From Gammaproteobacteria bacterium HGW-Gammaproteobacteria-15 (GTDB taxonomy: Bacteria; Pseudomonadota; Gammaproteobacteria; Enterobacterales; Alteromonadaceae), in NCBI GenBank assembly GCA_002840125.1, contig PGZF01000002.1, positions 1-64,000 of the forward strand: DNA of 64,000 bases, given 5' to 3'. Positions 48,584-63,888 of this stretch are shown here, in pieces (positions within the stretch are counted from its first letter, which is position 1; each line of letters begins with the position of its first letter). A model generated the notes under the pieces. The model was not told the DNA's origin. It ran no database searches and was given only the letters and a program-made list of their open reading frames with translations. The position numbers and the translations under genes were made by a program.

Positions 48584-48650
48584 TTGTTGTCCTCTGTTCT
48601 TTGCTGAACTATAAACAAAACTTAGTGTTAATTATCGCGGTAATCACTCC

Positions 48651-48738
48651 GTACAACTTTGCCGGAACACGCCGTATATACCTCCCTGTAGGCTCGTGTT
48701 TTTCGTCCCTGAAAAACACGGTTCCGGTCAAAGTGTAC
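48651..48738 (+). repeat. Structured repeat family 1, copy L1 (core on + strand)
   Basis: The core ACGCCGTATATACCTCCCTG followed by TAGGCT carries an apical hairpin (CGTGTTTTTC with GAAAAACACG). A basal stem encloses it: GTACAACTTTG plus CCGGAAC on the left and GTTCCGG plus TCAAAGTGTAC on the right. The core recurs at 63588-63674 with a different but again self-complementary stem. Confidence 0.85.
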
Positions 48739-48765
48739 TGCGCGCTTACCTGTTCAGATGAAACA

Positions 48766-48877
48766 GGCAAGTGCGGATGTGTTTTTTTCGGCGACCGTTG
48801 CAGCCCAGGATGGGCGAATCGAGCCCCCAGGGATGGGTTTACGGCGTGTCGCAGAAAAAATACACGCAGCAATTGCC
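48766..48877 (-). repeat. Structured repeat family 1, copy R1 (core on - strand)
   Basis: The core read on the + strand, CGAGCCCCCAGGGATGGG then TTTACGGCGTGTC, is the reverse complement of the L-type core. A small hairpin (GCCCAGGATGGGC) precedes it. Basal arms from GGCAAGTGCGGATGTG (48766) and from GTGTCGCAG to AATTGCC (48877) pair imperfectly, T-rich against A-rich. With L1 it makes a convergent pair filling the 318-base gap between scoA and liuE. Confidence 0.8.
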
Positions 48878-48901
48878 GGAATGCTGCAACTTATCTGAAT
48901 A

Positions 48902-49816
48902 CTAAACCTTAGTTTGCGTGCACTTGGCCCTTAGCGCCAATCCTACTTTAGAACTAGGCTGCTTCCCCAGTTTGTCGGTAATAAACCAGCCGGCTTTGGC
49001 CTGCGCAGTTAAATCGATGCCGTGTGAAATGCCAAGCCCATTCAGCAAATACACCACATCTTCGGTGGCAACATTGCCTGACGCACCGGCAGCGTAAGGG
49101 CAGCCACCTAAACCGGCGACGGCACTGTCAATCACTGATATGCCGCGGTTTAGCGCCACGTAAATATTGGTTAACGCCTGGCCGTAGGTGTCGTGAAAAT
49201 GCACCGCCAGTTTATCCATCGGCACCATGCTTAGCACCGCATCCAGCATGGCATTCACTTTATCCGGCGTGCCAACGCCTATGGTATCGCCCAGTGAAAT
49301 TTCGTAGCAGCCCATCTCTAACAGGGCTTTGGCGACCAATGCTACTTCGGTAGGCGCAACATCGCCCTGATACGGGCAGCCCACCACGCAAGACACATAA
49401 CCACGCACCTTAATGCCGTCGGCTTTGGCCGCTTCTACCACAGGAGCGAAGCGCTCCAGGCTTTCGGCTATGCTGCAGTTAATATTTTTCTGGCTAAAGG
49501 CCTCTGACGCTGCGCCAAAAATCGCTACTTCAGTGGCACCGGCGGCTTTGGCCGCTTCATAGCCTTTTAAATTTGGCGTTAGTGCGGCGTAAGTGACTCC
49601 GGCTTTACGCGCAATACCAGCAAACACGTCTGAAGAGTCGGCCATTTGCGGCACCCATTTCGGCGAGACAAAAGCGCCGCTTTCAATGTAGCTATGGCCG
49701 GCCGCGGTTAGCATATCAATCAGCGCAATTTTATCGCTGGTGGCGACTGCAGCTTCGTTTTGCAGGCCATCACGCGGGCCTACTTCAACAAGGCGTACAC
49801 TTTTTGGTAAGCTCAT
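48902..49816 (-). CDS. liuE: Hydroxymethylglutaryl-CoA lyase
   Basis: The 304-residue TIM-barrel lyase splits HMG-CoA into acetyl-CoA and acetoacetate, the last step of the leucine pathway. It has [12 protein letters not shown] (about 10-21) with the catalytic Arg/Asp, the metal His pair in [11 protein letters not shown], and [17 protein letters not shown] with the active-site Cys loop. Its start overlaps the liuD stop by 4 bases. The operon order liuA-B-C-D-E matches the gammaproteobacterial pattern. Confidence 0.95.
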
Positions 49817-51798
49817 GCTTCCTCCGGGCTAAAATCAACCAGCTCGGCACCGTCTTTTACCAGGTCGCCGGCGGCATAAAATACTTCATTCACCACGCCG
49901 TTTTTCGGCGCTTTAATGCTGTATTCCATTTTCATCGCTTCCATAATCACCAAGGTATCACCGGCTTTAACTGTTGCGCCAGCTTTGGCCATTACCGCGA
50001 CAATAGTGCCGTTCATCGGTGCGGTTAAGCTGCCGGCGTGATCTGCGCCTTCAACTTCTGTGCTGACTTCAGTCTGGTAGCTAAAGTCGTAACGCTGGTG
50101 TTTAATAAATACGCTGATGGTGTCGCCGTAGCGGCTAACCCGTACCTTAGTACGATGCTCACCCAGCACGGCACTAAGCTCATCGCCGTTAAGCTCTGCG
50201 GTGCAGCACAGCTGTTGGCCTTCAACGTCAATCACATAATGCTGTTGCAGTTGCTGCACTTTTAATACCGAGCTTTGCTCGCCGTGCTGCAGGCTGATAT
50301 CAACTTTAGGTGTTTCATTAATGCGCCAGCCATGGCTAAAGTGCCACGGGCTAAAGCTGTTGCATGACGTTTGCGGTGCTTTTTGCTGCTGCAAAATAAA
50401 CAGCGCAGCCAATACCAGTGCCTGATTATTTTCTTTATTGGCCGGCGCAAATAAGCTTTGCTGATGTTTGTTGATAAAGTTGGTGTCAAGCTCGGCCGCT
50501 TTAAACGCCGGGTGCTCGGTTAAGCTGGTTAAAAAGCTTAAGTTAGTGGTAACGCCGGCAATGCGGTAATCGTCCAGCGCACGTAACATGCGGGCGATGG
50601 CGCGGTCGCGGCTTTCATCCCAAACGATCAGCTTGGCGATCATCGGGTCATAAAAGGGTGATACTTCATCATTTTCTACCACACCGGTATCCACCCGCAC
50701 ATGGCGGTTGGCTTCAGGCTGGCGCAAATAGGTCAGTTTACCGGTTTGCGGCAGGAAGTCGTTATCCGGATCTTCGGCATACACCCGCACTTCAATGGCG
50801 TGGCCATCGAGTTGAATATCATCCTGCGCCAGTGGCAGTTGCTCGCCGGCGGCAACCAACAGTTGCCATTTTACCAGATCCTGGCCGGTAATCATCTCGG
50901 TAACCGGGTGCTCTACCTGCAGCCGGGTGTTCATTTCCATAAAGTAGAAGGAGCCGTCTTCATCGAACAAAAACTCCACCGTACCGGCGCCGCGATAATC
51001 AATGGCTTTGGCGGCTTTTACCGCGGCTTCGCCCATGGCTTTGCGCTGTTCGCTACTAAAGTTGGGTGCCGGCGCTTCTTCAATCACTTTTTGGTGCCGG
51101 CGCTGGATGGAGCAATCGCGTTCGGCTAAGTACACCGCATTGCCGTGGTTGTCGGCAAAGACCTGAATTTCAATATGGCGCGGTTTGGTCAGATAGCGCT
51201 CAATCAGCATTTTGTCATTGCCAAAGCCGGCTTTGGCTTCACGCCGTGCACTGGCTAAGGCATCATTAAATTCTTCCTGTTTCCATACCACACGCATGCC
51301 TTTACCGCCGCCGCCGTAGGCCGCTTTCAGCAGTTGTGGGTAGCCAATGCGGGCTGATTCTTTACTTAACAGCGCATCGCTTTGATCGTCACCGTGATAA
51401 CCCGGCACCAGCGGCACGCCGGCTTTGGCCATAATATCTTTGGCCGCACTTTTTGAACCCATGGCGGTAATGGCGCCCACCGGTGGGCCGATAAACACCA
51501 CGCCGGCGTCCTCACAGGCTTTGGCAAAGCTTTCGTTTTCGGATAAAAAGCCGTAGCCTGGGTGAATAGCCTCTGCGCCGCTTTGTTTGGCGATGGCAAT
51601 AATTTTGTCACTGCGCAGGTATGAGTCTTTGCTCGGTGCAGGGCCCAACAGATACGCTTCGTCGGCCATGCGCACATGGCGGGCATTGGCGTCGGCTTCA
51701 GAATACACCGCCACGCAGCGGATGCCGAGTTTATGTGCGGTGTCGATAACGCGGCAGGCAATTTCGCCGCGGTTGGCGATTAATATTTTACGAAACAT
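49813..51798 (-). CDS. liuD: Methylcrotonyl-CoA carboxylase, biotin-containing alpha subunit
   Basis: The 661-residue subunit has a biotin carboxylase part (1-450, with [12 protein letters not shown], the ATP loop [33 protein letters not shown] and [15 protein letters not shown]). A linker and a C-terminal biotinyl domain follow, with the biotin lysine in [12 protein letters not shown] (about 622-633). With LiuB it carboxylates 3-methylcrotonyl-CoA. Its ATG shares one base with the liuC end. Length is typical. Confidence 0.96.
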
Positions 51799-52598
51799 TA
51801 TGCGTCTTCCTTGCCAAGCCAGGCCGGTTTACGTTTTTCTAAGAATGCGCTTAAGCCTTCCTGACCTTCAGCTGATACCCTAATTTCGGCAATTGCTTGT
51901 TCAGTATGAGCAATAACATTGTTGCTGATTTTGCGGTTATAAATATTATGAATCAGCGATTTTGCTGCCGTCAGTGCTTTCGGGCTATTTTGCAGCAGGG
52001 TGTTGATAAAGGTTTCCAGGCTGTCATTCAGCTCGCCGTCGCTAACCACTTCATGCAGTAAGCCCAGTTGTTGCGCTTTGGCGGCCATAAAGCGTTCGGC
52101 AGTTAAGAAATAACGCCGGCTTTCACGCTCGCCAATGGCGCGCATCACATAGGGGCTGATTACGGCCGGTATTAAACCGATGCGCACTTCACTTAAGCAG
52201 AAGCTGGCATTCTGTTCGGCGATGGCGATATCACAGCAGGCGACTAAACCCAGAGCGCCGCCAAAGGCTGCGCCTTTGATTAATGCGATGGTAGGTTTAG
52301 GGAATTTATCCAGCCGGTGCATTAAGGTGGCAAGCTCTGCGGCGTCGTTTAAATTCTGCTGGTAGTTTTTTTGCGCCATAGAGCGCATCCAGTTTAAGTC
52401 GGCACCGGCAGAGAAGTTTTTGCCGTTGGCGGCCAGCACCAATACCCGCACTTCATCGTTATTGGCTAAGTCTTTCAGCACGGCGATAAGCTCGGCTATC
52501 ATCGCATCGTCAAAGGCGTTATGCACTTGTGGCCGGTTTAGCGTTAAGGTGGCTACGCCGCGCGGGTCAATACTGACTTCTGTGTAAACCTGGTTCAT
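51798..52598 (-). CDS. liuC: Methylglutaconyl-CoA hydratase
   Basis: This 266-residue crotonase-family enzyme hydrates 3-methylglutaconyl-CoA to HMG-CoA. It shows NRPQVHNAFDDAMIAEL (about 18-34), the oxyanion loop FSAGADLNWM (about 63-72), and GGALGLVACCDIAIAEQNASFCLSEVRIGLIPAVISPYV with the catalytic Glu region. The DLNWM sequence is typical of the LiuC/AUH group. It lies 12 bases after liuB. Confidence 0.94.
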   Translation of the reverse strand: MNQVYTEVSIDPRGVATLTLNRPQVHNAFDDAMIAELIAVLKDLANNDEVRVLVLAANGKNFSAGADLNWMRSMAQKNYQQNLNDAAELATLMHRLDKFPKPTIALIKGAAFGGALGLVACCDIAIAEQNASFCLSEVRIGLIPAVISPYVMRAIGERESRRYFLTAERFMAAKAQQLGLLHEVVSDGELNDSLETFINTLLQNSPKALTAAKSLIHNIYNRKISNNVIAHTEQAIAEIRVSAEGQEGLSAFLEKRKPAWLGKEDA

Positions 52599-52610
52599 AT
52601 TCTTCCCCTG

Positions 52611-54218
52611 TTACATCCGAAACACGCCAAAACGGCTCTCTTCAATCGGTGCATTCAGCGCAGCGGCTAATGCCAGCCCCACTGTCATTCGCGTTTGTGC
52701 CGGATCGATAATACCGTCATCCCACAAGCGGCCACTGGCATAATACGGATGGCCCTGTTTTTCATACTGTTCAATAATCGGCTGTTTCAGCGCTTTTTCG
52801 GCGTCCGCCGACAGCGTTTCGCCTTTACGGGCTAAACCGTCTTTGGTCACCTGTGCCATAACACCTGCAGCTTGCTCGCCGCCCATTACCGAAATACGGG
52901 CATTGGGCCACATCCACATCATGGTGGGGTCGTAAGCGCGGCCGCACATACCGTAGTTGCCGGCACCGTAGCTGCCGCCAATCAGCACCGTAAATTTCGG
53001 CACCTTGGCACAGCTTACTGCCATCACCATCTTGGCGCCGTGCTTGGCAATGCCTTCGGCTTCGTATTTTTTACCCACCATAAAGCCGGTAATGTTTTGC
53101 AGGAACAACAGCGGAATTTTGCGCTGGGCACACAGCTCAATAAAGTGCGCGCCCTTTTGTGCGGATTCCGAAAAAAGTATTCCGTTATTGGCGACAATGC
53201 CTACCGGATAGCCGAAGATGCGTGCAAAACCGCACACTAAGGTGGCGCCGTAGTACTGTTTAAATTCATCAAAGTCTGAGCCATCGACAATGCGGGCGAT
53301 CACTTCTTTCACATCAAACGGCTTGCGCAAATCGGTGCCGACTATGCCGTATAACTCTTTGGCATCATACAGCGGCTCTTGCGCCGGCTTAATGTCCATC
53401 GGTTGCGGGGCAGGGCGGTTTAACCGGCTTACTGCGTTACGCGCCAGTTGCAGTGCGTGCTCGTCGTTTAGGGCATAGTGGTCTGCCACGCCGGAGATTT
53501 TACAGTGCACGTCAGCACCGCCAAGCTCTTCGGCAGAGACTTCTTCACCGGTGGCGGCTTTTACCAGCGGAGGGCCGGCGAGAAAGATAGTGCCTTGCTC
53601 TTTTACGATAATGCTTTCATCGGCCATCGCCGGTACATAAGCACCACCGGCAGTACACAAGCCCATAACCACGGCAATTTGCGGTATGCCTTTAGCTGAC
53701 ATATTGGCCTGGTTAAAGAAGATACGGCCAAAATGCAGTTTATCCGGGAACACATCATCCTGGCGTGGCAGGTTGGCACCGCCGGAGTCAACCAGATAAA
53801 TACACGGCAGGTGGCAGCGCTCGGCAATTTCCTGGGCGCGTAAATGCTTTTTCACGGTAAGCGGGTAATAAGTACCGCCTTTTACCGTGGCGTCGTTGGC
53901 GACTATCATGCACTCGACGCCGTTAACGCGGCCGATACCGGCGACGACACCGGCACTGGGTACGTAATCGTCGTAGCATTCCCAGCCGGCAAACTGACCG
54001 ACTTCTAAAAACGGTGAGCCAGGGTCGAGCAGCTTTTGAATGCGATCGCGTACAAACAGCTTACCGCGTGCGGTATGCCGTGCAATCAGCGCTTCGCCGC
54101 CACCGAGTTTAATTTGTTGTACTTTGCTTTGCAGATCATCAACTACGGCCTGCATGGCGGCGGCGTTTTTCTGGAAGTCCTCAGAGCGAGGATTGATTTT
54201 TGAGGTAATTCTGGTCAC
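52611..54218 (-). CDS. liuB: Methylcrotonyl-CoA carboxylase, beta (carboxyltransferase) subunit
   Basis: The 535-residue carboxyltransferase transfers the carboxyl group from biotin on LiuD to 3-methylcrotonyl-CoA. It contains [46 protein letters not shown] and [18 protein letters not shown] with the oxyanion glycines. The size is normal for MCC beta. It is separated from liuA by 275 bases that hold structured repeats of family 2 but no gene. Confidence 0.96.
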
Positions 54219-54262
54219 TTAAGTCACCTTATACCAGAGCTGGTTAGACAAAGCGGAACCGG

Positions 54263-54322
54263 AACAACTAAGCAGACGATCAAAAGCGAGGATGGGAGAT
54301 CCGAGCGGGTCTGCGTGTTGTT
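54263..54322 (+). repeat. Structured repeat family 2, copy a (core on + strand)
   Basis: The core GATCAAAAGCGAGGATGGGA then GATCCGAGCGGG is enclosed by AACAACTAAGCAGAC on the left and GTCTGCGTGTTGTT on the right, which pair over 12 positions. It is almost the reverse complement of the copy at 59173-59232, including GCGGAACCGG on the outside. Confidence 0.85.
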
Positions 54323-54379
54323 ACGGTGTAAGCTTTGGCCTGCACCGGACTTAGATTCACGGCTTCGCTGCTTTCACAC

Positions 54380-54441
54380 ATTTAACACACTCGCCCGTTC
54401 GCCGCTCCCCGGCTCACTTTTGATCGCTCGTTTAGTTAAAT
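54380..54441 (-). repeat. Structured repeat family 2, copy b (core on - strand)
   Basis: The reverse-complement core CGCCCGTTCGCCGCTCCCCG then GCTCACTTTTGATCGCTCG lies between ATTTAAC (54380-54386) and GTTAAAT (54435-54441). Basal stem sequence differs from copies a, c and d. With copy a it forms a convergent pair inside the liuA-liuB gap. Confidence 0.8.
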
Positions 54442-54493
54442 CTGCTACGCGCTTCGCCTCGTTCAACTTTCTATTCAGTTGCGCCTTAAAACC

Positions 54494-55663
54494 TTAGTTT
54501 GATTCGGTAAACAATTCCCGGCCAATCAGCATACGGCGGATTTCCGAGGTACCGGCACCAATTTCGTAAAGCTTGGCATCACGCAGTAAGCGCCCGGTAG
54601 GGTATTCGTTAATGTAGCCGTTACCGCCCAGCAACTGAATCGCATCCAGCGCCATCTTGGTCGCCAACTCTGCTGAATACAGAATAACTGCCGCGGCATC
54701 TTTACGCGTGGTTTCACCCCGGTCGCAGGCTTTGGCTACGGTATAAACGTAAGATTTAGCGGCATTCATCTGGGTGTACATGTCGGCCAGTTTACCCTGT
54801 ACCAGCTGGAATTCACCGATAGATTGACCAAATTGCTTACGGTCGTGAATATAAGGCACTACCACGTCCATACAGGCCTGCATAATGCCCAGCGGGCCAG
54901 CTGATAACACTACGCGCTCGTAGTCCAGGCCGCTCATTAATACTTTAACGCCACCGCCAATTTGGCCCAGTACGTTTTCTGCCGGGACTTCGCAATCTTC
55001 AAACACCAGTTCACAGGTGTTAGAGCCGCGCATACCCAGTTTGTCCAGCTTCTGCGCTGTACTAAAACCTTTGGTGCCACGCTCAACAATAAAAGCGGTA
55101 ATGCCCTTAGAGCCTGCGTTAATGTCGGTTTTGGCGTAAATTACATAGGTGTGTGCATCCGGGCCATTGGTGATCCACATTTTATTACCGTTTAAAATGT
55201 AGTTATCGCCTTTTTTCTCAGCGCGCAGTTTCATGCTAACCACGTCTGAGCCGGCGTTGGGCTCGCTCATAGCTAAGGCACCGATATGCTCGCCCGAGCA
55301 CAGCTTAGGAAGATACTTCATTTTCTGCGCTTCAGTGCCGTTGCGGAAAATTTGGTTTACACACAGGTTGGAATGCGCACCGTACGATAAGCCAACAGAG
55401 GCAGAAGCACGGCTGATTTCTTCCAGCGCTACCACGTGCTCTAAATAGCCTAAGCCTGAGCCACCGTATTTTTCATCGACGGTAATGCCCAGCAGGCCTA
55501 AGTCACCGAGTTTGCGCCACAGCTCATTCGGGAACTCATTTTTTTCGTCAATATGGGCGGCGCGCTGCGCGATTTCTTCGCGGGCAAAGGCGTTAACCTG
55601 CTCGCGGATCATATCGACCGTTTCACCTAAATCGAAATTAAGCCCTTTATAACTGCTAATCAT
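54494..55663 (-). CDS. liuA: Isovaleryl-CoA dehydrogenase
   Basis: The 389-residue flavoprotein oxidises isovaleryl-CoA to 3-methylcrotonyl-CoA and passes electrons to ETF. It has [14 protein letters not shown] (about 131-144), [19 protein letters not shown], and the isovaleryl-specific catalytic Glu in [13 protein letters not shown] (about 248-260). [36 protein letters not shown] closes the protein. The position of the catalytic Glu separates IVD from other acyl-CoA dehydrogenases such as the one at 59400. It is the first structural gene after liuR. Confidence 0.95.
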
Positions 55664-55703
55664 TGTGGATCCCCGTTTGCTATGTTTTTTAACCGTCGCT
55701 GTG

Positions 55704-56114
55704 TTAATTCAGCCCGGTTTTATGTTGTTTGGCGTCGGCTAAGGTATCGCGGCAACGTTTTTCAACGGTGACCAGTTCCATCAGCACAACTTTGATATCG
55801 TCCAATTGTTGGTGCAGCTCGGCTTTTTTCAGCTCTATCAGCTGCAGCATGGTACTTAATTGGGTAACGCTGCTTTTGTCTGCGTCATATAATTCAAACA
55901 ACTGGCCGGTTTCGGCCAGGCTAAAGCCTAAGCGCTTGCCGCGTAATATCAGCTTTAACCGCACGCGGTCGCGCTTGCTGTAAATACGGGTTTGGCCGTT
56001 ACGTAAAGGCGTGATCAGCCCCTGATCTTCATAAAAGCGGATACTACGGGTGGTAATATCAAACTCTTTGGCCAGTTCGCTGATGCTATATGTTTTTTCT
56101 TCTTTTTCTGTCAT
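55704..56114 (-). CDS. liuR: MerR-family regulator of branched-chain catabolism
   Basis: ATG at 56114 (136 residues) was preferred because GGGGAAGG precedes it; a TTG at 56141 would add nine residues. The N-terminal winged HTH reads [26 protein letters not shown] (about 9-34), followed by [24 protein letters not shown] and a C-terminal coiled coil. LiuR in related bacteria represses liu and other branched-chain genes. It heads the minus-strand operon, and a palindrome of the expected type overlaps its own promoter. Confidence 0.92.
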
Positions 56115-56139
56115 ATCCGCCTTCCCCGAAAACGCAGTC

Positions 56140-56168
56140 AATATAAGTGAAGTTTACGTAAAGGTAAA
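56140..56168 (-). promoter_or_regulatory. liuR-liuA promoter with LiuR-like operator
   Basis: On the minus strand TTTACC (56163-56168) and TATATT (56140-56145) are 17 bases apart. The imperfect palindrome TTTACGTAAAGGTAAA (56153-56168, 6 of 8 half-site positions match) overlaps the -35 and spacer. It resembles the ACGT-containing LiuR motif described for gammaproteobacteria. Confidence 0.6.
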
Positions 56169-56302
56169 GCTGAGGGCGTGCTGCTAAGTTGGCAAAATTG
56201 CCATTTTTACCGTGTTTGTAAAGCTAAAATGCCAGTTTGTACTGGTCAGACTGTACACTTTGCTGAACCAAAAGCGCGGTACACTACCATAGTGTTAGGT
56301 GG

Positions 56303-56337
56303 TTGACGTTGGCGTAAACGTAAATTTGGTGTAGGCT
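56303..56337 (+). promoter_or_regulatory. LiuR-like operator and possible promoter upstream of the thiolase gene
   Basis: TTGGCGTAAACGTAAA (56309-56324) shares the CGTAAACGTAAA theme with the site in front of liuR. TTGGCG could act as a -35 with TAGGCT (56332-56337) as a weak -10, 17 bases away. The thiolase ATG is 42 bases further. This suggests that both divergent operons answer to LiuR. Confidence 0.5.
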
Positions 56338-56379
56338 CTGGAGCAACTTTTTAGCCGACAGCTTTTTCAGGAGAACTTC

Positions 56380-57561
56380 ATGGCTACCGACAATATTGTA
56401 ATCGTTGCTGCTACACGTACTGCTATGGGCGGTTTTATGGGCGGCTTAACCGATGTGGATGCCACTGTACTGGGTGCTACTGCTATTAAAGCCGCGTTAG
56501 AGCAGGCCGGTTTAAGCGGCGACAAGGTTAGTGAAGTGATTATGGGTAATGTGTTGCCGGCCGGTTTAGGCCAGGCACCGGCACGCCAGGCGACATTAAA
56601 AGCCGGCTTACCGTTATCCGCGGGCGCCACTACCATTAATAAAGTATGCGGCTCGGGCTTAAAAGCGGTGATGCTGGCCAGCGACCTGTTAAAGGCCGGT
56701 AGCGCCGATGTAGTAGTGGCCGGTGGTATGGAGTCGATGAGCAACGCGCCGTATCTGCTGCCAAAAGCCCGTAGCGGTTACCGTATGGGCCACGGCGAAA
56801 TTAAAGATCATATGATGCTGGACGGCCTGGAAAATGCCTATGACGGCAAAGCCATGGGCTGTTTTGCTCAGGGCACAGCGGATGAAAAAGGCATCACCCG
56901 CGAGCAGATGGACGCTTTTGCCGTGCAATCTACCACCCGCGCCCAGCAGGCGATTGCCAGCGGTGCCTTTAAAAACGAAATTACGCCGCTAACCTTTCAA
57001 ACCCGTAAAGGTGAAATGACTTTTGCGATAGATGAGCAACCGGGCAATGCCAAAATCGACAAAATTCCATCACTGCGTCCGGCCTTTGCCAAAGACGGCA
57101 CTATTACTGCGGCTAACTCCAGCTCTATCTCTGACGGCGCCGCTGCGCTGGTATTGATGCGCGAAAGCGATGCCAAAGCGCAGGGTGCTAAGCCTTTAGC
57201 GCGCGTAGTAGCGCATGCCACCAACTCAATGGAACCGGCACTGTTTACCATAGCTCCGGTTGGCGCGATGCAAAAAGTGCTGCAAAAAGCCGGCTGGGAT
57301 AAACAGCAGGTAGATCTGTGGGAAATTAACGAAGCTTTTGCCATGGTAACTATGCTGGCCATTAACGAGCTGGGCCTGGACGAGAGCAAAGTAAACGTAA
57401 ACGGCGGTGCCTGTGCGCTGGGCCATCCTATCGGTGCTTCAGGTGCGCGTATTCTGGTTACCCTTATTCATGCGCTACGCAACCGCGGTTTAAGCAAAGG
57501 CGTGGCCTCACTGTGTATCGGTGGCGGCGAAGCGGTCGCATTGGCTGTGGAAGTACTGTAA
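56380..57561 (+). CDS. Acetyl-CoA C-acyltransferase (thiolase)
   Basis: The 393-residue thiolase has the acyl-accepting Cys90 in NKVCGSGLKAV, GGMESMSNAPYLL (about 115-127), and the second catalytic Cys with the preceding His/Asn loops in NGGACALGHPIGASGARI near residue 380. It splits acetoacetyl-CoA to two acetyl-CoA or 2-methylacetoacetyl-CoA in isoleucine breakdown. Its place opposite liuR and before mmsA suggests both uses. AGGAGAAC lies before the ATG. Confidence 0.93.
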   Translation: MATDNIVIVAATRTAMGGFMGGLTDVDATVLGATAIKAALEQAGLSGDKVSEVIMGNVLPAGLGQAPARQATLKAGLPLSAGATTINKVCGSGLKAVMLASDLLKAGSADVVVAGGMESMSNAPYLLPKARSGYRMGHGEIKDHMMLDGLENAYDGKAMGCFAQGTADEKGITREQMDAFAVQSTTRAQQAIASGAFKNEITPLTFQTRKGEMTFAIDEQPGNAKIDKIPSLRPAFAKDGTITAANSSSISDGAAALVLMRESDAKAQGAKPLARVVAHATNSMEPALFTIAPVGAMQKVLQKAGWDKQQVDLWEINEAFAMVTMLAINELGLDESKVNVNGGACALGHPIGASGARILVTLIHALRNRGLSKGVASLCIGGGEAVALAVEVL

Positions 57562-57635
57562 CGAACATTTAAGCTGCTGGCGCAATTACACAGATAACAA
57601 GCTGGCGGCATAGCCAAACAATCGGGAGAAGCAAC

Positions 57636-59132
57636 ATGACACAACAGGTTAAGCATTTTATCGACGGCGAATTTGTCGCACCAACAGGTGACAAACTGAT
57701 CGCGGTTACCAACCCGGCAACACAAGATGTGATTGCTCAGGTCGCATGCGCCACACCGGCAGAAATGGAACGCGCTATTGAGTCGGCCAAAGCGGCGTTT
57801 TTAACGTGGAAAGAAGTACCGGTATCAGAACGCGCCCGTTTAATGATGCGCTTTGCTCATCTGTTAAAAGAGCACCAGGGCGAGATTGCTGACATTATCT
57901 GCCGCGAACTGGGTAAAACAGTAGAAGACGCCAAAGGTGATGTCTGGCGAGGTATCGAGGTAGTTGAGCAGGCGGCAAATATTCCGTCATTAATGATGGG
58001 CGAAACGGTAGAAAACGTCGCGCGCAGCATCGACACCTACAGCTATATTCAGCCGCTGGGCGTGTGCGCCGGTATTACGCCGTTTAACTTCCCGGCGATG
58101 ATCCCGCTGTGGATGTTCCCAATGGCCATTGCCTGTGGTAACACCTTTATTTTAAAACCGTCAGAGCAAGACCCAATGACGGTAAACAAAATTGCCGAGC
58201 TGTTCGTGCAGGCTGGCGCGCCAAAAGGCGTGTTGCAGGTAGTGCACGGCGCGAAAGAGCAGGTAGATGCCATTTTGCATCACCCTGATATTAAAGCTAT
58301 TTCCTTTGTTGGCTCGGTAAATGTTGGCCAGTACATCTACAAAACCGGTACCGACAATTTAAAACGCGTACAGGCTTTTGCCGGTGCGAAAAACCACATG
58401 GTTATTATGCCGGATGCCAATAAGCAGCAGGTTATCAATGCGTTAGTCGGTGCCTCTGTTGGCGCCGCCGGTCAGCGCTGTATGGCAATCTCTGTAGCGG
58501 TATTTGTTGGTGCTGCCGCCGATTGGATCCCTGAAGTTGCTGCGGCCATTGGTAAAGTACGCCCGGGTGTTTACACTGACCCGAACGCCGCTTACGGCCC
58601 GCAAATCAGCCCGCAGGCGCGTGCCCGGGTGTTATCACTGATTGAACAAGGTAAAAAAGAAGGCGCTACCTGCGTGCTGGATGGCTCAGACTGCAAAGTC
58701 GACGGCTACCCGAACGGTAACTGGGTAGGCCCCACGGTGTTTAGCAACGTCACTACCGATATGGAAATTTACAAGCAGGAAATTTTCGGCCCGGTATTAA
58801 CCACTATGCAGGTTGGCTCGCTGGCTGAGGCGTTAAAAGTAGTAAACGATAGCCCTTACGGTAACGGGACTTCTATCTTTACCGCCAGCGGTGCAGCGGC
58901 ACGTAAGTATCAGCATGAGGTGGAAGTAGGCCAGGTAGGTATTAACATTCCTATTCCGGTACCACTGCCGTTTTTCTCGTTCACCGGCTGGAAGGGTTCG
59001 TTCTACGGCGATCAGCATGCTTATGGTAAGCAGGCAGTGCGTTTTTATACCGAGACGAAGACCATTACAGCGCGTTGGTTTGACGACGATATTCCGGTGT
59101 CTGGCCCGAATATGTCGATTAACTTACGTTAA
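57636..59132 (+). CDS. mmsA: Methylmalonate-semialdehyde dehydrogenase (acylating)
   Basis: The 498-residue CoA-dependent aldehyde dehydrogenase turns methylmalonate semialdehyde into propionyl-CoA in valine breakdown. It has [23 protein letters not shown] (about 139-161), [12 protein letters not shown], the catalytic Cys in [10 protein letters not shown] (about 279-288) and [15 protein letters not shown], all typical of MmsA. GGGAGAAG precedes the ATG. It is followed by a 267-base gap holding repeats of family 2. Confidence 0.95.
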
Positions 59133-59172
59133 GTCAGATTAAAGTGTATTTGTAGTGCGGCGCTTCCACCGT

Positions 59173-59232
59173 AACAACACGCAGACCCGCGAATTTCTCC
59201 CAAATTCGCTCTTGATCGTCTGCTTAGTTGTT
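59173..59232 (-). repeat. Structured repeat family 2, copy c (core on - strand)
   Basis: AACAACACGCAGAC and GTCTGCTTAGTTGTT enclose the reverse-complement core CCCGCGAATTTCTCCCAAATTCG. The arms match copy a at 54263-54322 in opposite orientation, and similarity extends into GGTTCCGC outside the stem. The internal hairpin differs: here AATTTCTCCCAAATT, in copy a GGATGGGAGATCC. Confidence 0.85.
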
Positions 59233-59290
59233 CCGGTTCCGCCCGCCTGCAAGTCCTGAGTAAATTACTAATCGGAACAAGCGCAGCGTA

Positions 59291-59360
59291 AGGGGAATTA
59301 ATTAGCGAGCGATCAAAAGTGAGGCTGGGAGAGCCGAACGGGCGAGCGTTTAAATCCCCT
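59291..59360 (+). repeat. Structured repeat family 2, copy d (core on + strand)
   Basis: AGGGGAATTAA on the left pairs with TTTAAATCCCCT on the right and encloses GATCAAAAGTGAGGCTGGGA then GAGCCGAACGGGCGAGCG. The internal hairpin GGCTGGGAGAGCC is variable among copies. It ends 39 bases before the acyl-CoA dehydrogenase start. Confidence 0.85.
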
Positions 59361-59399
59361 GAAAGCGTAGCGATTGGTTAAGCGGTAAGGTCCAAACAG

Positions 59400-60557
59400 A
59401 TGAATTTCAATTTAACAGAAGACCAACAAGCCTTTGTCGATGTGGCCAAACAGTTTGCCGAACAAGAACTGGCGCCACACGCAGCGCAGTGGGATCGTGA
59501 GCATCACTTTCCTAAAGACGTGATTCAAAAAGCCGGCGAACTGGGCTTTTGCTCATTGTATACGCCCGAAGAAGACGGCGGCATGGGCTTGTCGCGGTTA
59601 GACTCCTCGATTATTTTCGAACAGCTGTCGATGGGCTGCACCGCCACCACGGCCATGCTGACCATTCACAATATGGCGACCTGGATGATTGCTAACTGGG
59701 GCACCAGTGATGCCAAGGCAGAGTGGATGGAGCATCTGGTCACCGGCCAGAAATTAGCCTCTTACTGCTTAACCGAGCCAGGCTCAGGTTCAGACGCAGC
59801 CAGCCTGCGTACCAGTGCGAAAAAAGATGGCAACGAATACGTGTTAAACGGCTCGAAGATGTTTATCTCCGGTGCCGGTGAAACTGAAGTATTGGTAGTA
59901 ATGGCGCGCACCGGTGAAGCCGGGCCAAAAGGTATTTCAGCCTTTATAGTGCCGGCCGATGCCAAGGGCGTTATTTACGGCAAAGCCGAAGAGAAAATGG
60001 GCTGGAACGCTCAGCCAACCCGGCTGATTACCTTTGAAGATGTGCGCATTCCGGCGCATTACCTGTTAGGTAATGAAGGCGAAGGTTTTGGCTTTGCCAT
60101 GAAAGGCTTAGACGGTGGCCGGATTAATATTGCTACCTGCTCTATTGGTACCGCGCAGCAGGCGCTGAATACTGCGCGTAACTATATGTTAGAGCGGCGG
60201 CAGTTTGGTAAGCCATTGTCAGCATTTCAGGCGCTGCAGTTTAAGCTGGCCGATATGGCTACCGAATTAGTGGCAGCACGGCAGTTAGTGCGCTTAGCGG
60301 CGTTTAAGCTGGACCAAAAAGACGGTGAAGCAACGGCTTATTGTGCGATGGCGAAACGCTTTGCTACTGATGTTGGTTTTCAGGTGTGTGACCAGGCGCT
60401 GCAGTTGCATGGCGGCTATGGCTATATTAAAGAATACCCATTAGAGCGGCATTTCCGTGATGTGCGCGTGCACCAGATTTTGGAAGGTACCAACGAAATT
60501 ATGCGGTTGATTATCGGCCGGCGTTTACTGGATGAAGCCGCAGGCGACATTCTTTAA
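59400..60557 (+). CDS. Acyl-CoA dehydrogenase, probably isobutyryl-CoA/2-methylacyl-CoA type
   Basis: The 385-residue flavoprotein has CLTEPGSGSDAASLRTSA (about 122-139), MFISGAGETEVLVVMART, and the catalytic Glu in QILEGTNEIMRLIIGRRLL near the C-terminus, the common position for short-chain enzymes. LiuA by contrast carries it in the middle. With mmsA, two crotonase genes and mmsB alongside, the likely substrates are isobutyryl-CoA (valine) and 2-methylbutyryl-CoA (isoleucine). Substrate is inferred from context. Confidence 0.9.
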   Translation: MNFNLTEDQQAFVDVAKQFAEQELAPHAAQWDREHHFPKDVIQKAGELGFCSLYTPEEDGGMGLSRLDSSIIFEQLSMGCTATTAMLTIHNMATWMIANWGTSDAKAEWMEHLVTGQKLASYCLTEPGSGSDAASLRTSAKKDGNEYVLNGSKMFISGAGETEVLVVMARTGEAGPKGISAFIVPADAKGVIYGKAEEKMGWNAQPTRLITFEDVRIPAHYLLGNEGEGFGFAMKGLDGGRINIATCSIGTAQQALNTARNYMLERRQFGKPLSAFQALQFKLADMATELVAARQLVRLAAFKLDQKDGEATAYCAMAKRFATDVGFQVCDQALQLHGGYGYIKEYPLERHFRDVRVHQILEGTNEIMRLIIGRRLLDEAAGDIL

Positions 60558-60582
60558 GTCGCAGATGAATTCAAGCTGGGGG

Positions 60583-60677
60583 AACAGGATTGTTCTAAAC
60601 CGACCGTTGGAGGCCATGGATGGCCGGAGTCGAGCCCCAGGGACGGTTTATGGCGTGTCGGTGTGGACAATGCTGTT
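60583..60677 (-). repeat. Structured repeat family 1, copy R2 (core on - strand)
   Basis: The + strand reads CGAGCCCCAGGGACGG then TTTATGGCGTGTC, the same core as R1 and R3, after a GGCCATGGATGGCC hairpin. The basal arms AACAGGATTGTT (60583-60594) and GACAATGCTGTT (60666-60677) pair in 10 of 12 positions. It is a single copy without an L partner, between the acyl-CoA dehydrogenase and the hydratase. Confidence 0.83.
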
Positions 60678-60722
60678 TCACCGGGCACGTAGCATGAACT
60701 ACGCCCATATCAGGAGACAACT

Positions 60723-61496
60723 ATGGCTCAACTAAAACTCGAAAAACGCGGCCACACGGCGCTTATTACCATGTCTAACCCGCCGGCTAATACCTGGACG
60801 CGCGAAACCTTGATCCAACTGCGTAACGCAGTAAAAAGCCTCGATGAAGACAAAAATATCTATGCGCTGGTGATCACCGGTGAGGGCGATAAATTTTTCT
60901 CTGCCGGCGCCGATTTAAAGCTGTTTGCCGATGGCGATAAAGCCGTGGCCAGCGATATGGCGCGTATTTTCGGCGAAGCCTTTGAAACGCTGAGCAGCTT
61001 TAGCGGCGTATCTATTGCCGCCATTAACGGCTATGCCATGGGCGGCGGCTTAGAAGTGGCGCTGGCTTGTGATATCCGCATTGCCGAGCAACAAGCCCAA
61101 ATGGCACTGCCGGAGGCTAAAGTCGGCTTATTGCCTTGTGCCGGTGGCACGCAAAACCTGGCCTGGTTAGTGGGCGAAGGTTGGGCGAAACGGATGATTT
61201 TATGCGGCGAGCGTATCGGCGCTGAAAAAGCGCTGCAAATTGGCCTGGTAGAAGAAGTGGTTGCTAGCGGTATGGCGCTGGAAACCGCACTGGCGATGGC
61301 CGATAAAGCGGCAGAGCAAAGTCCGTCGTCGGTTACGGCCTGTAAAAAGCTTATTCAACAAGGTCGTAGTGGCAGCATTCAAAGTGCCTTACCACTGGAG
61401 CGTGAGCTGTTTGTCGGCCTGTTCGACACTAAAGATCAGGTAGAAGGCGTGCAGGCGTTTTTAGAAAAACGTAAAGCCAACTGGGTGAACGGCTAA
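60723..61496 (+). CDS. Enoyl-CoA hydratase (crotonase family)
   Basis: The 257-residue enzyme hydrates the 2-enoyl-CoA made by the upstream dehydrogenase (methacrylyl-CoA or tiglyl-CoA). It shows SNPPANTWTRETLIQL (about 17-32), FFSAGADLKLFADG (about 59-72) and MGGGLEVALACDIRIAEQQAQMALPEAKVGLLPCAGGTQ with both catalytic Glu regions. AGGAGACAACT precedes the ATG. Its stop overlaps the next start. Confidence 0.92.
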   Translation: MAQLKLEKRGHTALITMSNPPANTWTRETLIQLRNAVKSLDEDKNIYALVITGEGDKFFSAGADLKLFADGDKAVASDMARIFGEAFETLSSFSGVSIAAINGYAMGGGLEVALACDIRIAEQQAQMALPEAKVGLLPCAGGTQNLAWLVGEGWAKRMILCGERIGAEKALQIGLVEEVVASGMALETALAMADKAAEQSPSSVTACKKLIQQGRSGSIQSALPLERELFVGLFDTKDQVEGVQAFLEKRKANWVNG

Positions 61497-62638
61497 TGAG
61501 CGGCGTAAATGAGGTGGTGCTGTATCAAGAGCTGACAGCACAAAACGGCAAAAAGATTGGCGTGGCTACACTTAACTCAGAAAAGTCGCTGAATGCACTA
61601 AGTTTGCCGATGGTGGAGTCGTTATTGCCACAATTATTAGCCTGGCAGGCCGATAGCAGCATCAGTATGGTGCTGCTACAGGGCGCGGGCGATAAAGCCT
61701 TTTGCGCCGGTGGCGATATCCGCGACTTATATAAAGCCATGCTGGATAAACCCGGTACCTATGCGCCTTATGTCGAAGAGTTCTTCACCAAAGAGTACAC
61801 ACTGGATTATTTAATCCACACCTTTGGCAAGCCGGTGCTGGTGTGGGGCAACGGCATAGTGATGGGCGGTGGTCTGGGCTTAATGGCCGGTGCGTCGCAT
61901 CGGGTGGTCACTGCAACCAGCCGCATAGCGATGCCGGAAATGGCGATTGGCTTGTATCCGGATGTTGGTGCCAGCTGGTTTTTAAACCGCATGCCAGCCG
62001 GTTGCGGCCTGTTTTTAGGCTTAACCGGCGCTTCTATTAACGCTGCCGATGCCAAATTTATTGGTTTGGCGGATAACTTTTTATTGCATGAGCGCAAAGC
62101 CGCGTTGCTGGAAAAGCTACTGGCAGTAAATTGGGGCGATACTGTTGCACTGAATCATCAGAAACTCAGCGATGTGCTGCGTAGCGAGGAAGATCAATGC
62201 CGCACCCAGATGCCGCTAAGTAATATCCGGCCGCATCAGGGCGAAATTGAACAGCTGGCCAACCACGGCAATCTGCAAAGCGTGATCACTGCAATTAATA
62301 CTATGGCCGGTGAAGATAAGTGGTTGCAAAAAGCCAAAGAGTCGCTGGCTTATGGCAGCCCCATTACCGCGCATATCGTATTTGAGCTGTTAAAGCTGGG
62401 CCAGAGCAAAATACTGGCTGACAGCTTCCGCCTGGAGCTGGGCTTAAGTGTACAGTGCGGCAAGCTGGGTGAGTTTACCGAAGGCGTGCGCGCCTTGCTG
62501 ATGGACAAAGACTTACAACCGCAGTGGCAATACAAAACCGTTAGCGACGTGCCGCAAAGCGTGATTGATGAGCTGTTTCGCTCACCGTGGAGTGCGAACG
62601 AGCATCCGCTGTGCGAACTGGGTCAACCGGATAACTGA
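61496..62638 (+). CDS. 3-hydroxyisobutyryl-CoA hydrolase
   Basis: The 380-residue crotonase-fold hydrolase has LNSEKSLNALSLPMVE (about 26-41), FCAGGDIRDLYKAM (about 68-81), WGNGIVMGGGLGLMAGASHRVVT and MPEMAIGLYPDVGASWFL with the hydrolase-type Glu/Asp pair. The C-terminal SVQCGKLGEFTEGVRALLMDKD is typical of HIBCH. It frees 3-hydroxyisobutyrate from CoA for MmsB in the valine pathway. The ATG overlaps the preceding stop, and mmsB follows 12 bases later. Confidence 0.93.
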   Translation: MSGVNEVVLYQELTAQNGKKIGVATLNSEKSLNALSLPMVESLLPQLLAWQADSSISMVLLQGAGDKAFCAGGDIRDLYKAMLDKPGTYAPYVEEFFTKEYTLDYLIHTFGKPVLVWGNGIVMGGGLGLMAGASHRVVTATSRIAMPEMAIGLYPDVGASWFLNRMPAGCGLFLGLTGASINAADAKFIGLADNFLLHERKAALLEKLLAVNWGDTVALNHQKLSDVLRSEEDQCRTQMPLSNIRPHQGEIEQLANHGNLQSVITAINTMAGEDKWLQKAKESLAYGSPITAHIVFELLKLGQSKILADSFRLELGLSVQCGKLGEFTEGVRALLMDKDLQPQWQYKTVSDVPQSVIDELFRSPWSANEHPLCELGQPDN

Positions 62639-62650
62639 TTAGGAGCAAAT

Positions 62651-63544
62651 ATGGCGAAGGTTGCATTTATAGGCTTAGGCAATATGGGTGGCCCTATGGC
62701 CATTAATCTGGTGAAAGCCGGCCACGCTGTTACGGCGTTTGATTTATCGGCAGCGGCACTGGCACAGGTAAAAGTGGAAGGCGCTGCGGTTGCCGCCACA
62801 GCAGCAGAAGCCGTAACAGACGCTGAGTTTGTTATTTCTATGCTGCCGGCGGGTAAGCATGTGCTGGGTTTGTATCTGGGCGAGCAGGGTGTGGCAGGCA
62901 ATATCAGCAAAGATGCCCTGGTGATTGACTGCTCTACTATCGATGCTGACAGTGCGCGTAAAGTTGGCGCTGGCCTCTGTGCGCAGGGCATTGCCTTTAT
63001 CGACGCACCGGTATCCGGTGGGGTGGGTGGCGCGAAAGCCGGCACCTTGACCTTTATTGTCGGCGGTGAAGCAGCGCACTTTGAGCGCGCGAAAACCGTG
63101 CTTGGCAATATGGGTAAAAACCTGTTTCACGCAGGTGATGTCGGGGCCGGTCAGGTAGCGAAAATTTGCAACAATATGCTGCTGAGTATTTTGATGGTTG
63201 GCACCTCAGAAGCGCTGCAAATGGGCGTGGATAACGGCCTGGATCCAAAAGTGCTGTCAGACATTATGCTGAAAAGCTCCGGCCGTAACTGGACCTTAGA
63301 GCTGTATAACCCCTGCCCGGATGTGATGCCCAATGTGCCATCCAGCAACGGTTATCAGGGCGGTTTTATGGTCGATTTAATGGCGAAAGATTTAGGCTTG
63401 GCGCTGGAAGCGGCAATGCAAAGTAACAGCAGTACCCCGATGGGCGCACTGGCGCGCAGCCTGTACGTGGCGCACCAGCGGGCCGGCAATGGCAAACTGG
63501 ATTTTTCCAGTATTTTTAAGCTGTTTGAAAAGAAAGCAGGTTAG
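62651..63544 (+). CDS. mmsB: 3-hydroxyisobutyrate dehydrogenase
   Basis: The 297-residue enzyme oxidises 3-hydroxyisobutyrate to methylmalonate semialdehyde with NAD. It has FIGLGNMGGPMAINLVKAG (about 5-23), DAPVSGGVGGAKAGTL (about 118-133), the catalytic Lys in GAGQVAKICNNML (about 169-181) and SSGRNWTLELYNPCPDVMPNVPSSNGY, which is typical of MmsB. AGGAGC precedes the ATG. It completes the valine route with mmsA and the hydrolase. Confidence 0.95.
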   Translation: MAKVAFIGLGNMGGPMAINLVKAGHAVTAFDLSAAALAQVKVEGAAVAATAAEAVTDAEFVISMLPAGKHVLGLYLGEQGVAGNISKDALVIDCSTIDADSARKVGAGLCAQGIAFIDAPVSGGVGGAKAGTLTFIVGGEAAHFERAKTVLGNMGKNLFHAGDVGAGQVAKICNNMLLSILMVGTSEALQMGVDNGLDPKVLSDIMLKSSGRNWTLELYNPCPDVMPNVPSSNGYQGGFMVDLMAKDLGLALEAAMQSNSSTPMGALARSLYVAHQRAGNGKLDFSSIFKLFEKKAG

Positions 63545-63587
63545 CTTGAGCTTTATGGTGGCAGTTGGATAGAGCGACTGCCACTGC

Positions 63588-63674
63588 GTACATTTTTTGT
63601 CAGACACGCCGTAAATACGTCCCTGTAGGCTCGTGTTTTTCGTCCATGAAAAACACGGTCTGCCAAAAAAGTAC
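63588..63674 (+). repeat. Structured repeat family 1, copy L3 (core on + strand)
   Basis: The core ACGCCGTAAATACGTCCCTG then TAGGCT and the apical hairpin CGTGTTTTTC/GAAAAACACG are almost identical to L1. The basal arms GTACATTTTTTGTCAGAC and GTCTGCCAAAAAAGTAC are unrelated to the L1 arms except for the outer GTAC, yet pair well. Confidence 0.87.
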
Positions 63675-63759
63675 ATCCGTGTCAGCCTTAGTGCTAACCG
63701 GAACCTTAAAAGCATTTAATAGAGCGGAGCGGTGAGCTTCGTTCCAAACAAGATGATAA

Positions 63760-63870
63760 GCCTGCGCGAAGATACTTTTTGCGTAAGACCGTTGGCGGCC
63801 ATGGATGGTCAGAATCGAGCCCCAGGGACGGCTTGTGGCGTGTCGCAGCAAAAATGTTCGTAGCGCAGGC
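63760..63870 (-). repeat. Structured repeat family 1, copy R3 (core on - strand)
   Basis: The + strand core CGAGCCCCAGGGACGG then CTTGTGGCGTGTC follows a GGCCATGGATGGTC hairpin. The basal arms begin GCCTGCGC (63760-63767) and end GCGCAGGC (63863-63870), perfectly complementary, with further ACTTTTTGC/GCAAAAATG pairing inside. L3 and R3 fill most of the 344-base gap between mmsB and the SDR gene. Confidence 0.85.
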
Positions 63871-63888
63871 GATTACGGAGAAAGTCAG

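What the first reader, a model, noticed from the sequence alone, without database searches (positions are those of the whole stretch)
48651..63870. Family 1 structured repeats: one conserved core inside basal stems that covary between copies
Five copies (48651, 48766, 60583, 63588, 63760) share a core related to ACGCCGTAAATACGTCCCTG plus a small hairpin. The outer arms differ from copy to copy (CCGGAAC/GTTCCGG, CAGAC/GTCTG, AACAG/CTGTT, GCCTGCGC/GCGCAGGC), yet pair within each copy. Cores alternate in orientation, giving convergent L-R pairs in two gaps. Random decay would break pairing, so the structure is kept or is made anew, or the element targets existing palindromes such as hairpin loops. 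I know of similar repeats in other gammaproteobacteria but of no assigned function.
Basis: partly seen in the sequence, partly recalled or inferred. Interest (0 to 1): 0.7.

Follow-up and report, generated by a model that had tools for sequence, protein, structure and literature searches.

The report
YPAL-related folded mobile DNA repeats
Short hairpin-shaped repeats scattered between genes of this bacterium belong to a mobile DNA family, related to one described in Yersinia, whose outer arms differ from copy to copy yet still pair with each other.

Summary
R1, a covariance model built from 30 own-genome copies, finds the five window copies and 50 in the genome; arm covariation exceeds every shuffle for pairing and score. 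The core matches the printed Yersinia YPAL/RU-2 repeat at 28 of 29 positions, so the kind has a name. It is much wider than the range I found in print: 80 loci from many gammaproteobacterial genera, 31 of 369 class genomes, 31 of 31 genus genomes with 11-65 copies. Copies sit between genes, often as inverted pairs, and are gained, lost, enlarged and flipped in place. Insertion into existing palindromes is not supported at the sites compared. Two features look new. Hairpin 2 keeps a TCC loop (GGA on the other strand, CsrA-like) in 100 of 102 analysable copies while its stem varies. Arm mismatches outside Rheinheimera favour folding of the GGA strand; within Rheinheimera the bias is weak by one count. 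Best reading: a non-autonomous YPAL-type mobile element whose working form is the folded GGA strand. CsrA binding is the boldest open reading, untested.

The parts
48645..48748 (+). Copy 1, TCC strand on +. Inner arms GCCGGAAC 48661-48668 / GTTCCGG 48721-48727
48671..48693 (+). Copy 1 hairpin 1 (GCC, bulge, stem, loop with TCC, GGC)
   Evidence: structure
48696..48719 (+). Copy 1 hairpin 2, GTGTTTTTC-GTCCCT-GAAAAACAC
48768..48871 (-). Copy 2, inverted relative to copy 1 (convergent pair); GGA loops read on +
48803..48845 (+). Copy 2, the two GGA-loop hairpins as read on +, GGA at 48808 and 48831, 20 nt between them
60577..60680 (-). Copy 3, single; in the orthologous gap the element is in the other orientation in some relatives and absent in others
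60612..60654 (+). Copy 3, the two GGA-loop hairpins as read on +, GGA at 60618 and 60641
63582..63685 (+). Copy 4, TCC strand on +; arms CAGAC/GTCTG; hairpin 1 63608-63630, hairpin 2 63633-63656
63760..63870 (-). Copy 5, inverted relative to copy 4; arms GCCTGCGC 63760-63767 / GCGCAGGC 63863-63870; GGA-loop hairpins 63797-63839 as read on + (GGA at 63803 and 63826)
52599..52610 (.). Empty allele: 12-bp gap here; 25 of 30 comparable relatives have at least one core in this gap

Best explanation
These are copies of a non-autonomous mobile element related to the Yersinia YPAL/RU-2 repeat. Each copy is about 105 bp: paired arms close a junction that carries two small hairpins, each with a TCC loop (GGA on the opposite strand). 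SHOWN here: sequence relation to YPAL, arm covariation, conserved hairpin-2 loops on variable stems, presence or absence and in-place flipping between related species, frequent inverted pairing, and, outside Rheinheimera, a bias of arm mismatches towards G-U (G-T) pairs on the GGA strand. INFERRED: the element acts as a folded single strand, the GGA strand, as RNA or as single-stranded DNA; a change in one arm is compensated in the other because folding is needed; a partner reads the loops and not the stems; spread is driven in trans by an enzyme not found here. The confidence covers all of this except the identity of the partner.
For: Core equal to the printed YPAL/RU-2 at 28 of 29 positions (7 of 2000 shuffles of the 168-mer match at up to 8 mismatches). 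Covariation. All 31 genus genomes carry it, 11-65 copies; patchy in the class, 31 of 369. Orthologous gaps with and without copies: 63.5 kb gap empty in 3 of 30 loci; gap at 48.6 kb 22 of 29 with a core, 6 empty; gap at 52.6 kb 25 of 30 with a core, 3 empty and the window itself empty; gap at 60.6 kb 19 of 24 with a core, 2 empty. Flipped copies with closely similar arms in the same gap (read by eye). Neighbours within 300 bp convergent in 35 of 46. Hairpin 2: TCC in the loop in 100 of 102 analysable of 132 copies. Isolated mismatches A-C (G-T on the GGA strand) versus G-T: 55 to 23 in 67 non-Rheinheimera arm clusters, p 4e-4; 27 to 8 in 26 clusters of G419, p 0.002. Arms alone fold better on the GGA strand in 43 of 68, on the TCC strand in 11, equal in 14, p 3e-7.
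Against: No Y1 transposase in the genome and no other mobilising enzyme identified. No constant target duplication: one site shows CAGTA on both sides of an extra copy, which deletion between repeats would also give. On the model's basal pairs in Rheinheimera the A-C excess is small (56 to 43 and 82 to 76); the larger Rheinheimera count (67 to 26) includes a recurrent position of the arm type. No orientation preference relative to tandem genes (33 and 33 of 132; 22 and 23 of 83), so no sign of selection on one transcript. Strand-biased deamination could also produce the mismatch bias. Clustering reduces but does not remove relatedness.
Confidence: 0.62

Rival explanations
1. CsrA/RsmA ligand: the GGA-strand RNA shows two C-ANGGAY-G hairpins with 20 nt between the GGAs in window copies 2, 3 and 5, a layout one CsrA dimer could bridge. 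The repeats titrate CsrA or bring neighbouring mRNAs under it.
For: Loop conservation, C-G closing pair 30 of 30 in both hairpins of A1, GGA spacing, GGA-strand bias, CsrA gene present. A second repeat of the same design is matched weakly by Rfam TwoAYGGAY, a family proposed to bind CsrA (PMC4333381, passages). The CsrA consensus itself is recalled.
Against: No orientation preference; copies flip in place. No copy passes a CsrA-RNA family in Rfam: none in the window at gathering or at E <= 10 in 48500-49000; one named copy reaches 31.7 bits for TwoAYGGAY against a cut-off of 43, none in eight further loci. In G419 some inserted hairpins have GGA on the other strand. No expression or binding data.
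Confidence: 0.27
2. Pure mobility signal: the loops and arms are what an unknown enzyme reads on single-stranded DNA of the GGA strand; no host function.
For: Patchy spread, high copy number in G419 (83 in 400 kb), inverted dimers as in REP elements (PMC3733652, passages), strand bias present in all four gene contexts of G419.
Against: No Y1 transposase here; no enzyme gene found associated, though I did not search systematically for one. Bias is weaker where the TCC strand is sense (21 to 18 versus 60 to 13, Fisher p 0.002), which points to transcription.
Confidence: 0.3
3. Arm covariation is mutational: template switching across the hairpin copies one arm onto the other (quasi-palindrome correction, recalled).
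For: Near-perfect, copy-specific arms; in-place inversions between arms show that such sites rearrange.
Against: Predicts equal A-C and G-T; observed 55 to 23 and 27 to 8. Single-mismatch intermediates are seen by eye in orthologous B arms.
Confidence: 0.12
4. Two-way terminator or mRNA stabiliser at gene ends.
For: 48 of 132 copies lie between convergent genes and 8 between divergent ones; YPAL may affect RNA stability (review).
Against: In G419 divergent gaps are as frequent as convergent (20 and 16 of 83). Does not explain the invariant core and loops. I ran no terminator scan.
Confidence: 0.15
5. The element inserts into existing palindromes, whose halves become the arms.
For: Arms differ between copies; the review says YPAL targets span or adjoin dyad symmetry.
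Against: Empty alleles of 0-29 bp without a palindrome; the same arm types recur at many sites; L291 has arms without core but as a remnant of a filled site.
Confidence: 0.06

Closest known systems
YPAL / RU-2, Yersinia palindromic sequence (De Gregorio 2006, not held; Delihas 2007)
   Same: Core equal at 28 of 29 positions, both TCC-loop hairpins, paired arms, intergenic, polymorphic presence
   Different: Window units are about 105 bp against 167-168 bp; own arm types; frequent inverted pairs; hosts far outside Yersinia, Erwinia and the 3 E. coli matches in print
Rfam TwoAYGGAY (RF01731)
   Same: Two hairpins with A-Y-GGA-Y type loops inside an outer stem, on the GGA strand
   Different: No window match; one named copy at 31.7 bits below the cut-off 43. 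The genome's RF01731 matches lie at a second repeat family, not at R1 copies
CsrB/RsmY/RsmZ-type CsrA-binding sRNAs
   Same: Works-like comparison only: several GGA-loop hairpins in one RNA (recalled; PMC4333381 passages)
   Different: Dispersed repeats, not single sRNA genes; no Rfam match at gathering in the window
REP/BIME elements with RAYT transposases
   Same: Palindromic, intergenic, inverted dimers (PMC3733652 passages)
   Different: About 105 bp with two inner hairpins against 20-40 bp; no Y1 transposase in the genome

Membership tests
YPAL/RU-2 | Shared core sequence and hairpins | tested here: met
   28 of 29 core positions, same TCC-loop hairpins
YPAL/RU-2 | Length 167-168 bp with YPAL's outer ends | tested here: not met
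   R1 copies have 104 model positions; YPAL's outer ends were not searched for separately. So 'YPAL-related', not 'a YPAL'
YPAL/RU-2 | Empty and filled sites in relatives | tested here: met
   Four gaps
YPAL/RU-2 | Target duplication of 3-26 bp | tested here: inconclusive
   CAGTA at one site; other junctions not resolvable
YPAL/RU-2 | Targets at or next to dyad symmetry | tested here: inconclusive
   Empty alleles show none by eye; no statistical test
YPAL/RU-2 | Transcribed with neighbouring genes | not testable with these tools
   No transcript data
TwoAYGGAY RF01731 | Score above Rfam's gathering cut-off | tested here: not met
   0 matches in window at gathering, best named copy 31.7 of 43
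REP/RAYT | Y1 (REP-associated) transposase in the genome | tested here: not met
   PF01797: 0 matches, control positive in 5 of 14
CsrA-binding RNA | Paired hairpins with ANGGA loop | tested here: met
   Reverse strand of 100 of 102 hairpin-2 loops holds GGA; hairpin 1 by alignment A1
CsrA-binding RNA | Binds CsrA | not testable with these tools
   Needs a binding assay

The most novel reading that the evidence does not exclude
A family of mobile elements spread over Gammaproteobacteria carries a ready-made CsrA/RsmA ligand: on its GGA strand each copy is a paired-arm stem with two C-ANGGAY-G hairpins. Its spread seeds CsrA sites through genomes. The arms are free in sequence because only the fold matters, and inverted pairs offer a GGA copy whichever strand is transcribed.
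Probability: 0.27. Interest if true: 0.78.

Novelty: new variant of a known kind. Interest (0 to 1): 0.52.

Why it matters
It places the YPAL repeat of Yersinia in a much wider gammaproteobacterial family and shows that fold and loops, not arm sequence, are what is kept. It turns the question whether such repeats work as RNA or DNA, and on which strand, into one with a favoured answer (the GGA strand). If CsrA is the partner, mobile elements would be a source of new post-transcriptional control sites.

Tried and rejected
Considered and set aside. (1) REP/RAYT mobilisation: no Y1 transposase. (2) A known Rfam RNA: none at gathering in the window, none at E <= 10 in 48500-49000. Weak miRNA, Ysr224 and Ysr141 matches to some copies or their neighbourhood were taken as chance or generic long-hairpin matches and not followed. 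(3) Literature by core letters: 0 papers for six core strings; for GTAAATACGTCCCTG 0 occurrences in the 20 papers listed of 243 that hold one of the two terms. YPAL: 17 papers, six of them on repeats or Yersinia; passages of these six were read, and they place YPAL in Yersinia, Erwinia carotovora and 3 matches in E. coli. Rheinheimera with repeat terms: 7 papers listed, none holding the word Rheinheimera. De Gregorio 2006 (PMC1636318) is not held; what is said of it comes from the review. (4) Cis action through orientation: no preference in 132 model copies or in G419; a weak excess of TCC-sense (26 against 18) among the 83 classified of 90 strict-pattern copies vanished when all model copies were counted. 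(5) A crude gene caller put 22 copies inside genes; a codon-trained one gave 0 of 90 and 2 of 132. (6) A first wobble count by local alignment overcounted A-C because of a constant internal loop and was replaced.

Controls against: pattern search of the family gave 3 control matches (one each in G044, G045, G062) in 147 genomes. TwoAYGGAY at E <= 10 also rang in 1 of 14 control genomes; at E <= 0.01 in 0 of 14.

Rows dropped before counts: one search dropped 30 of 132 copies; one search kept 79 of 95, 96 of 132 and 124 of 150 rows of A2, A3 and A4 (anchor not found, duplicate or N); one search aligned 63 of 83 copies; A4 holds 150 of 186 hits; one search covers 30 of 31 genus genomes; loci with no comparable gap were left out (29, 30 and 24 of 31 kept).
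Full report
CHECK OF THE OBSERVATION. The five repeats exist at the stated places and their arms pair as described. A core pattern with up to 3 mismatches has 46 matches in the 4.68-Mb genome and none for the reversed pattern. Thirty copies were aligned (A1). A named structure (basal helix in two parts, hairpin 1, hairpin 2 and a two-pair closing helix) pairs in 91.6% of cells, against 73.1% in shuffles and 29.9-48.0% when partners are slid by 1-3 columns. Nineteen of 28 pairs show changes on both sides: all ten of the outer basal helix and four of six of the inner one (the other two never vary). The covariance model R1 finds 50 copies in the genome, 11-65 in each of 31 genus genomes and 186 in 31 fetched genus segments. 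Copies used for training match by construction.

WHAT THE UNIT LOOKS LIKE. Written with the TCC loops: left arm, ACACGCC, hairpin 1 (GCC, a short bulge, variable stem, loop with TCC, GGC), TCG, hairpin 2 (variable stem, loop with TCC), ACGG, right arm. In Rheinheimera two arm types recur, GAACCGG...CACaCCAAC / GTTGG..TTTAG...CCGGTTC and TGCGTACATTTTTT... / ...AAAAAAGTACATCCG, each with covarying variants. Stenotrophomonas and Xanthomonas copies also show recurrent arm types of their own (by eye). Elsewhere arms are mostly unrelated between copies; the median stem outside Rheinheimera has 27 Watson-Crick pairs in 67 arm clusters, though some copies pair poorly beyond 6-10 bp. Hairpin 2 keeps TCC in the loop in 100 of 102 analysable of 132 copies while the four pairs next to the loop take 24 forms. 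Hairpin 1 was part of the search pattern and is not independent evidence there. The C-G pair that closes each loop never varies in A1 (30 of 30 for both) while its neighbours do.

DISTRIBUTION. With up to 2 mismatches 38 of 147 family genomes match, with 3 control matches. With a longer pattern and 1 mismatch, 31 of 369 class genomes (28 of 272 genera) match, with no control match in the rows shown. The host genus is Rheinheimera-type by inference: the same-genus genome G063 has a contig of 3,308,353 bases, the length of the Rheinheimera sp. D18 chromosome.

SURROUNDINGS. Of 132 model copies in the 80 named loci, 48 lie between convergent genes, 33 and 33 between tandem genes in the two orientations, 8 between divergent genes, 2 inside called genes and 8 at edges (genes called by my own script). 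Neighbours closer than 300 bp are convergent in 35, divergent in 8 and head-to-tail in 3 of 46 cases. In G419 the contexts are 16 convergent, 22 GGA-sense, 23 TCC-sense, 20 divergent and 2 inside, so the preference for gene ends is not general.

DYNAMICS AT ORTHOLOGOUS SITES. Four gaps were compared in the genus. Gap 63545-63888: in 3 of 30 loci (L273, L281, L285) the genes overlap; the other 27 have 154-532 bp with recognisable copies (by eye). L263 and L267 have one copy where L265 and L266 have two, with CAGTA on both sides of the extra one. Gap 60558-60722: 24 of 31 loci comparable, 19 with a core, L301 and L304 empty, L291 with arms but no core, L309 and L310 with another hairpin. L294, L295, L297, L299 and L313 carry the element in one orientation, L307 and L311 in the other with closely similar arms; the same holds for L306, L312 and L315 against L302 (by eye). 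Gap 48584-48901: 22 of 29 with a core, 6 empty (21-29 bp), one of 60 bp without; the whole pair is inverted between own, L294, L307, L311, L313 and L288, L291, L293, L296, L297, L299, L301, L306, L312, L315. Gap 52599-52610: the window is an empty allele, like L296, L298 and L313, where 25 of 30 have a core. Cassettes of about 70 nt with more hairpins sit between hairpins 1 and 2 in some copies. Elements are gained, lost, enlarged and flipped in place, and arms arrive with them.

WHICH STRAND FOLDS. A transition on either side of a paired arm gives G-T or A-C. If one strand must fold, G-T on that strand is tolerated. Counting mismatches flanked by Watson-Crick pairs, A-C (G-T on the GGA strand) exceeds G-T 55 to 23 in 67 clusters outside Rheinheimera (p 4e-4) and 27 to 8 in 26 clusters of G419 (p 0.002). 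By element it is 38 to 13 (p 6e-4). Arms alone fold better on the GGA strand in 43 of 68, on the TCC strand in 11, equal in 14 (p 3e-7). Against it: on the model's basal pairs in Rheinheimera the excess is small (56 to 43, 82 to 76), and the 67 to 26 there includes a recurrent position. By context the bias is weakest where the TCC strand is sense (21 to 18, against 60 to 13 for GGA-sense plus convergent, Fisher p 0.002; counts, test), but in G419 it has the same direction in convergent 14:2, GGA-sense 15:4, TCC-sense 12:8 and divergent 11:5 (unclustered). Strand-biased deamination is not excluded. Pure arm-to-arm copying would give equal numbers.

COMPARISON WITH WHAT IS KNOWN. The printed Y. 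pestis RU-2/YPAL sequence (PMC2759123, passages with Table 1b) holds the core with one mismatch in 29 and folds with both TCC-loop hairpins; its GGA strand is the more stable, -68.1 against -59.4 kcal/mol. A review (PMC2229807, passages) gives YPAL as about 168 bp, in Yersinia and Erwinia carotovora, mobile by empty/filled comparison, with target duplications of 3-26 bp and targets at or near dyad symmetry. PMC2847712 (passage) counts YPAL in all Yersinia genomes it lists (2-144) and 3 in E. coli. The window family is therefore YPAL-related, differing in length, arms, pairing and hosts. The wide host range, the copy-specific arms, the loop rule and the strand bias were not found in print in the searches named, but the primary paper was not available. 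A second structured repeat of this genus has the same design and is matched weakly by Rfam TwoAYGGAY (own genome 4 places at E <= 10, best 0.0012; 21 of 31 genus genomes at E <= 0.01, none above the cut-off, 0 of 14 controls). TwoAYGGAY has been proposed to bind CsrA (PMC4333381, passages).

JUDGEMENT. Real, well supported as structured mobile DNA, and related to a named family: a new variant of a known kind. Arms that keep the fold but not the sequence, the loop rule and the strand bias are what would interest a specialist. The CsrA reading fits loops and strand but has no orientation support and no binding data.

Noticed in passing
L319:560-689 (-), L320:619-762 (+), L321:642-784 (-) and 1261-1375 (-); by eye also in gaps of L305 and L308: A second repeat family with variable paired arms and two GGA-loop hairpins (GCGGCAKGGATGCCGC and one with AGGGAY or AAGGAT), matched below cut-off by Rfam TwoAYGGAY.
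   Followed up: partly
window 54250-54335 and 59165-59245: A third structured sequence, once in each orientation: arms AACAAC..GCAGAC / GTCTGC..GTTGTT with an AC/TTA internal loop like that of the GAACCGG arm type, and a different inner part (marginal R1 hit 24.2 bits).
   Followed up: no
L323-L342 (G419:C1:1-400000): An unnamed 5.1-Mb gammaproteobacterial genome extremely rich in these repeats: 83 copies in 400 kb, with several subfamilies each having its own arms; some carry inserted hairpins with GGA on the TCC strand.
   Followed up: partly
L216:2488-3356: Six copies in strict alternation with a period of about 303 bp in Xanthomonas hortorum.
   Followed up: no
L141:3107-3747: Four copies head to tail, about 180 bp apart, in a Saccharophagus metagenome bin; an exception to the inverted pairing.
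   Followed up: no
L258-L318, cassettes inside copies (for example L270, L276, L277, L299): Cassettes of about 70 nt with two or three more hairpins (AAACTTCATCC.TGAAGTTT, CAAATTCGTTCC.GACGAATTTG) inserted between hairpins 1 and 2, present in one species and absent in its neighbour.
   Followed up: partly
L187:3104-3376, L168:266-1920: Pairs in unrelated genera (Amnimonas; a Pseudomonas metagenome bin) with different spacing; the 1.5 kb between the L168 copies was not examined for genes of its own.
   Followed up: no
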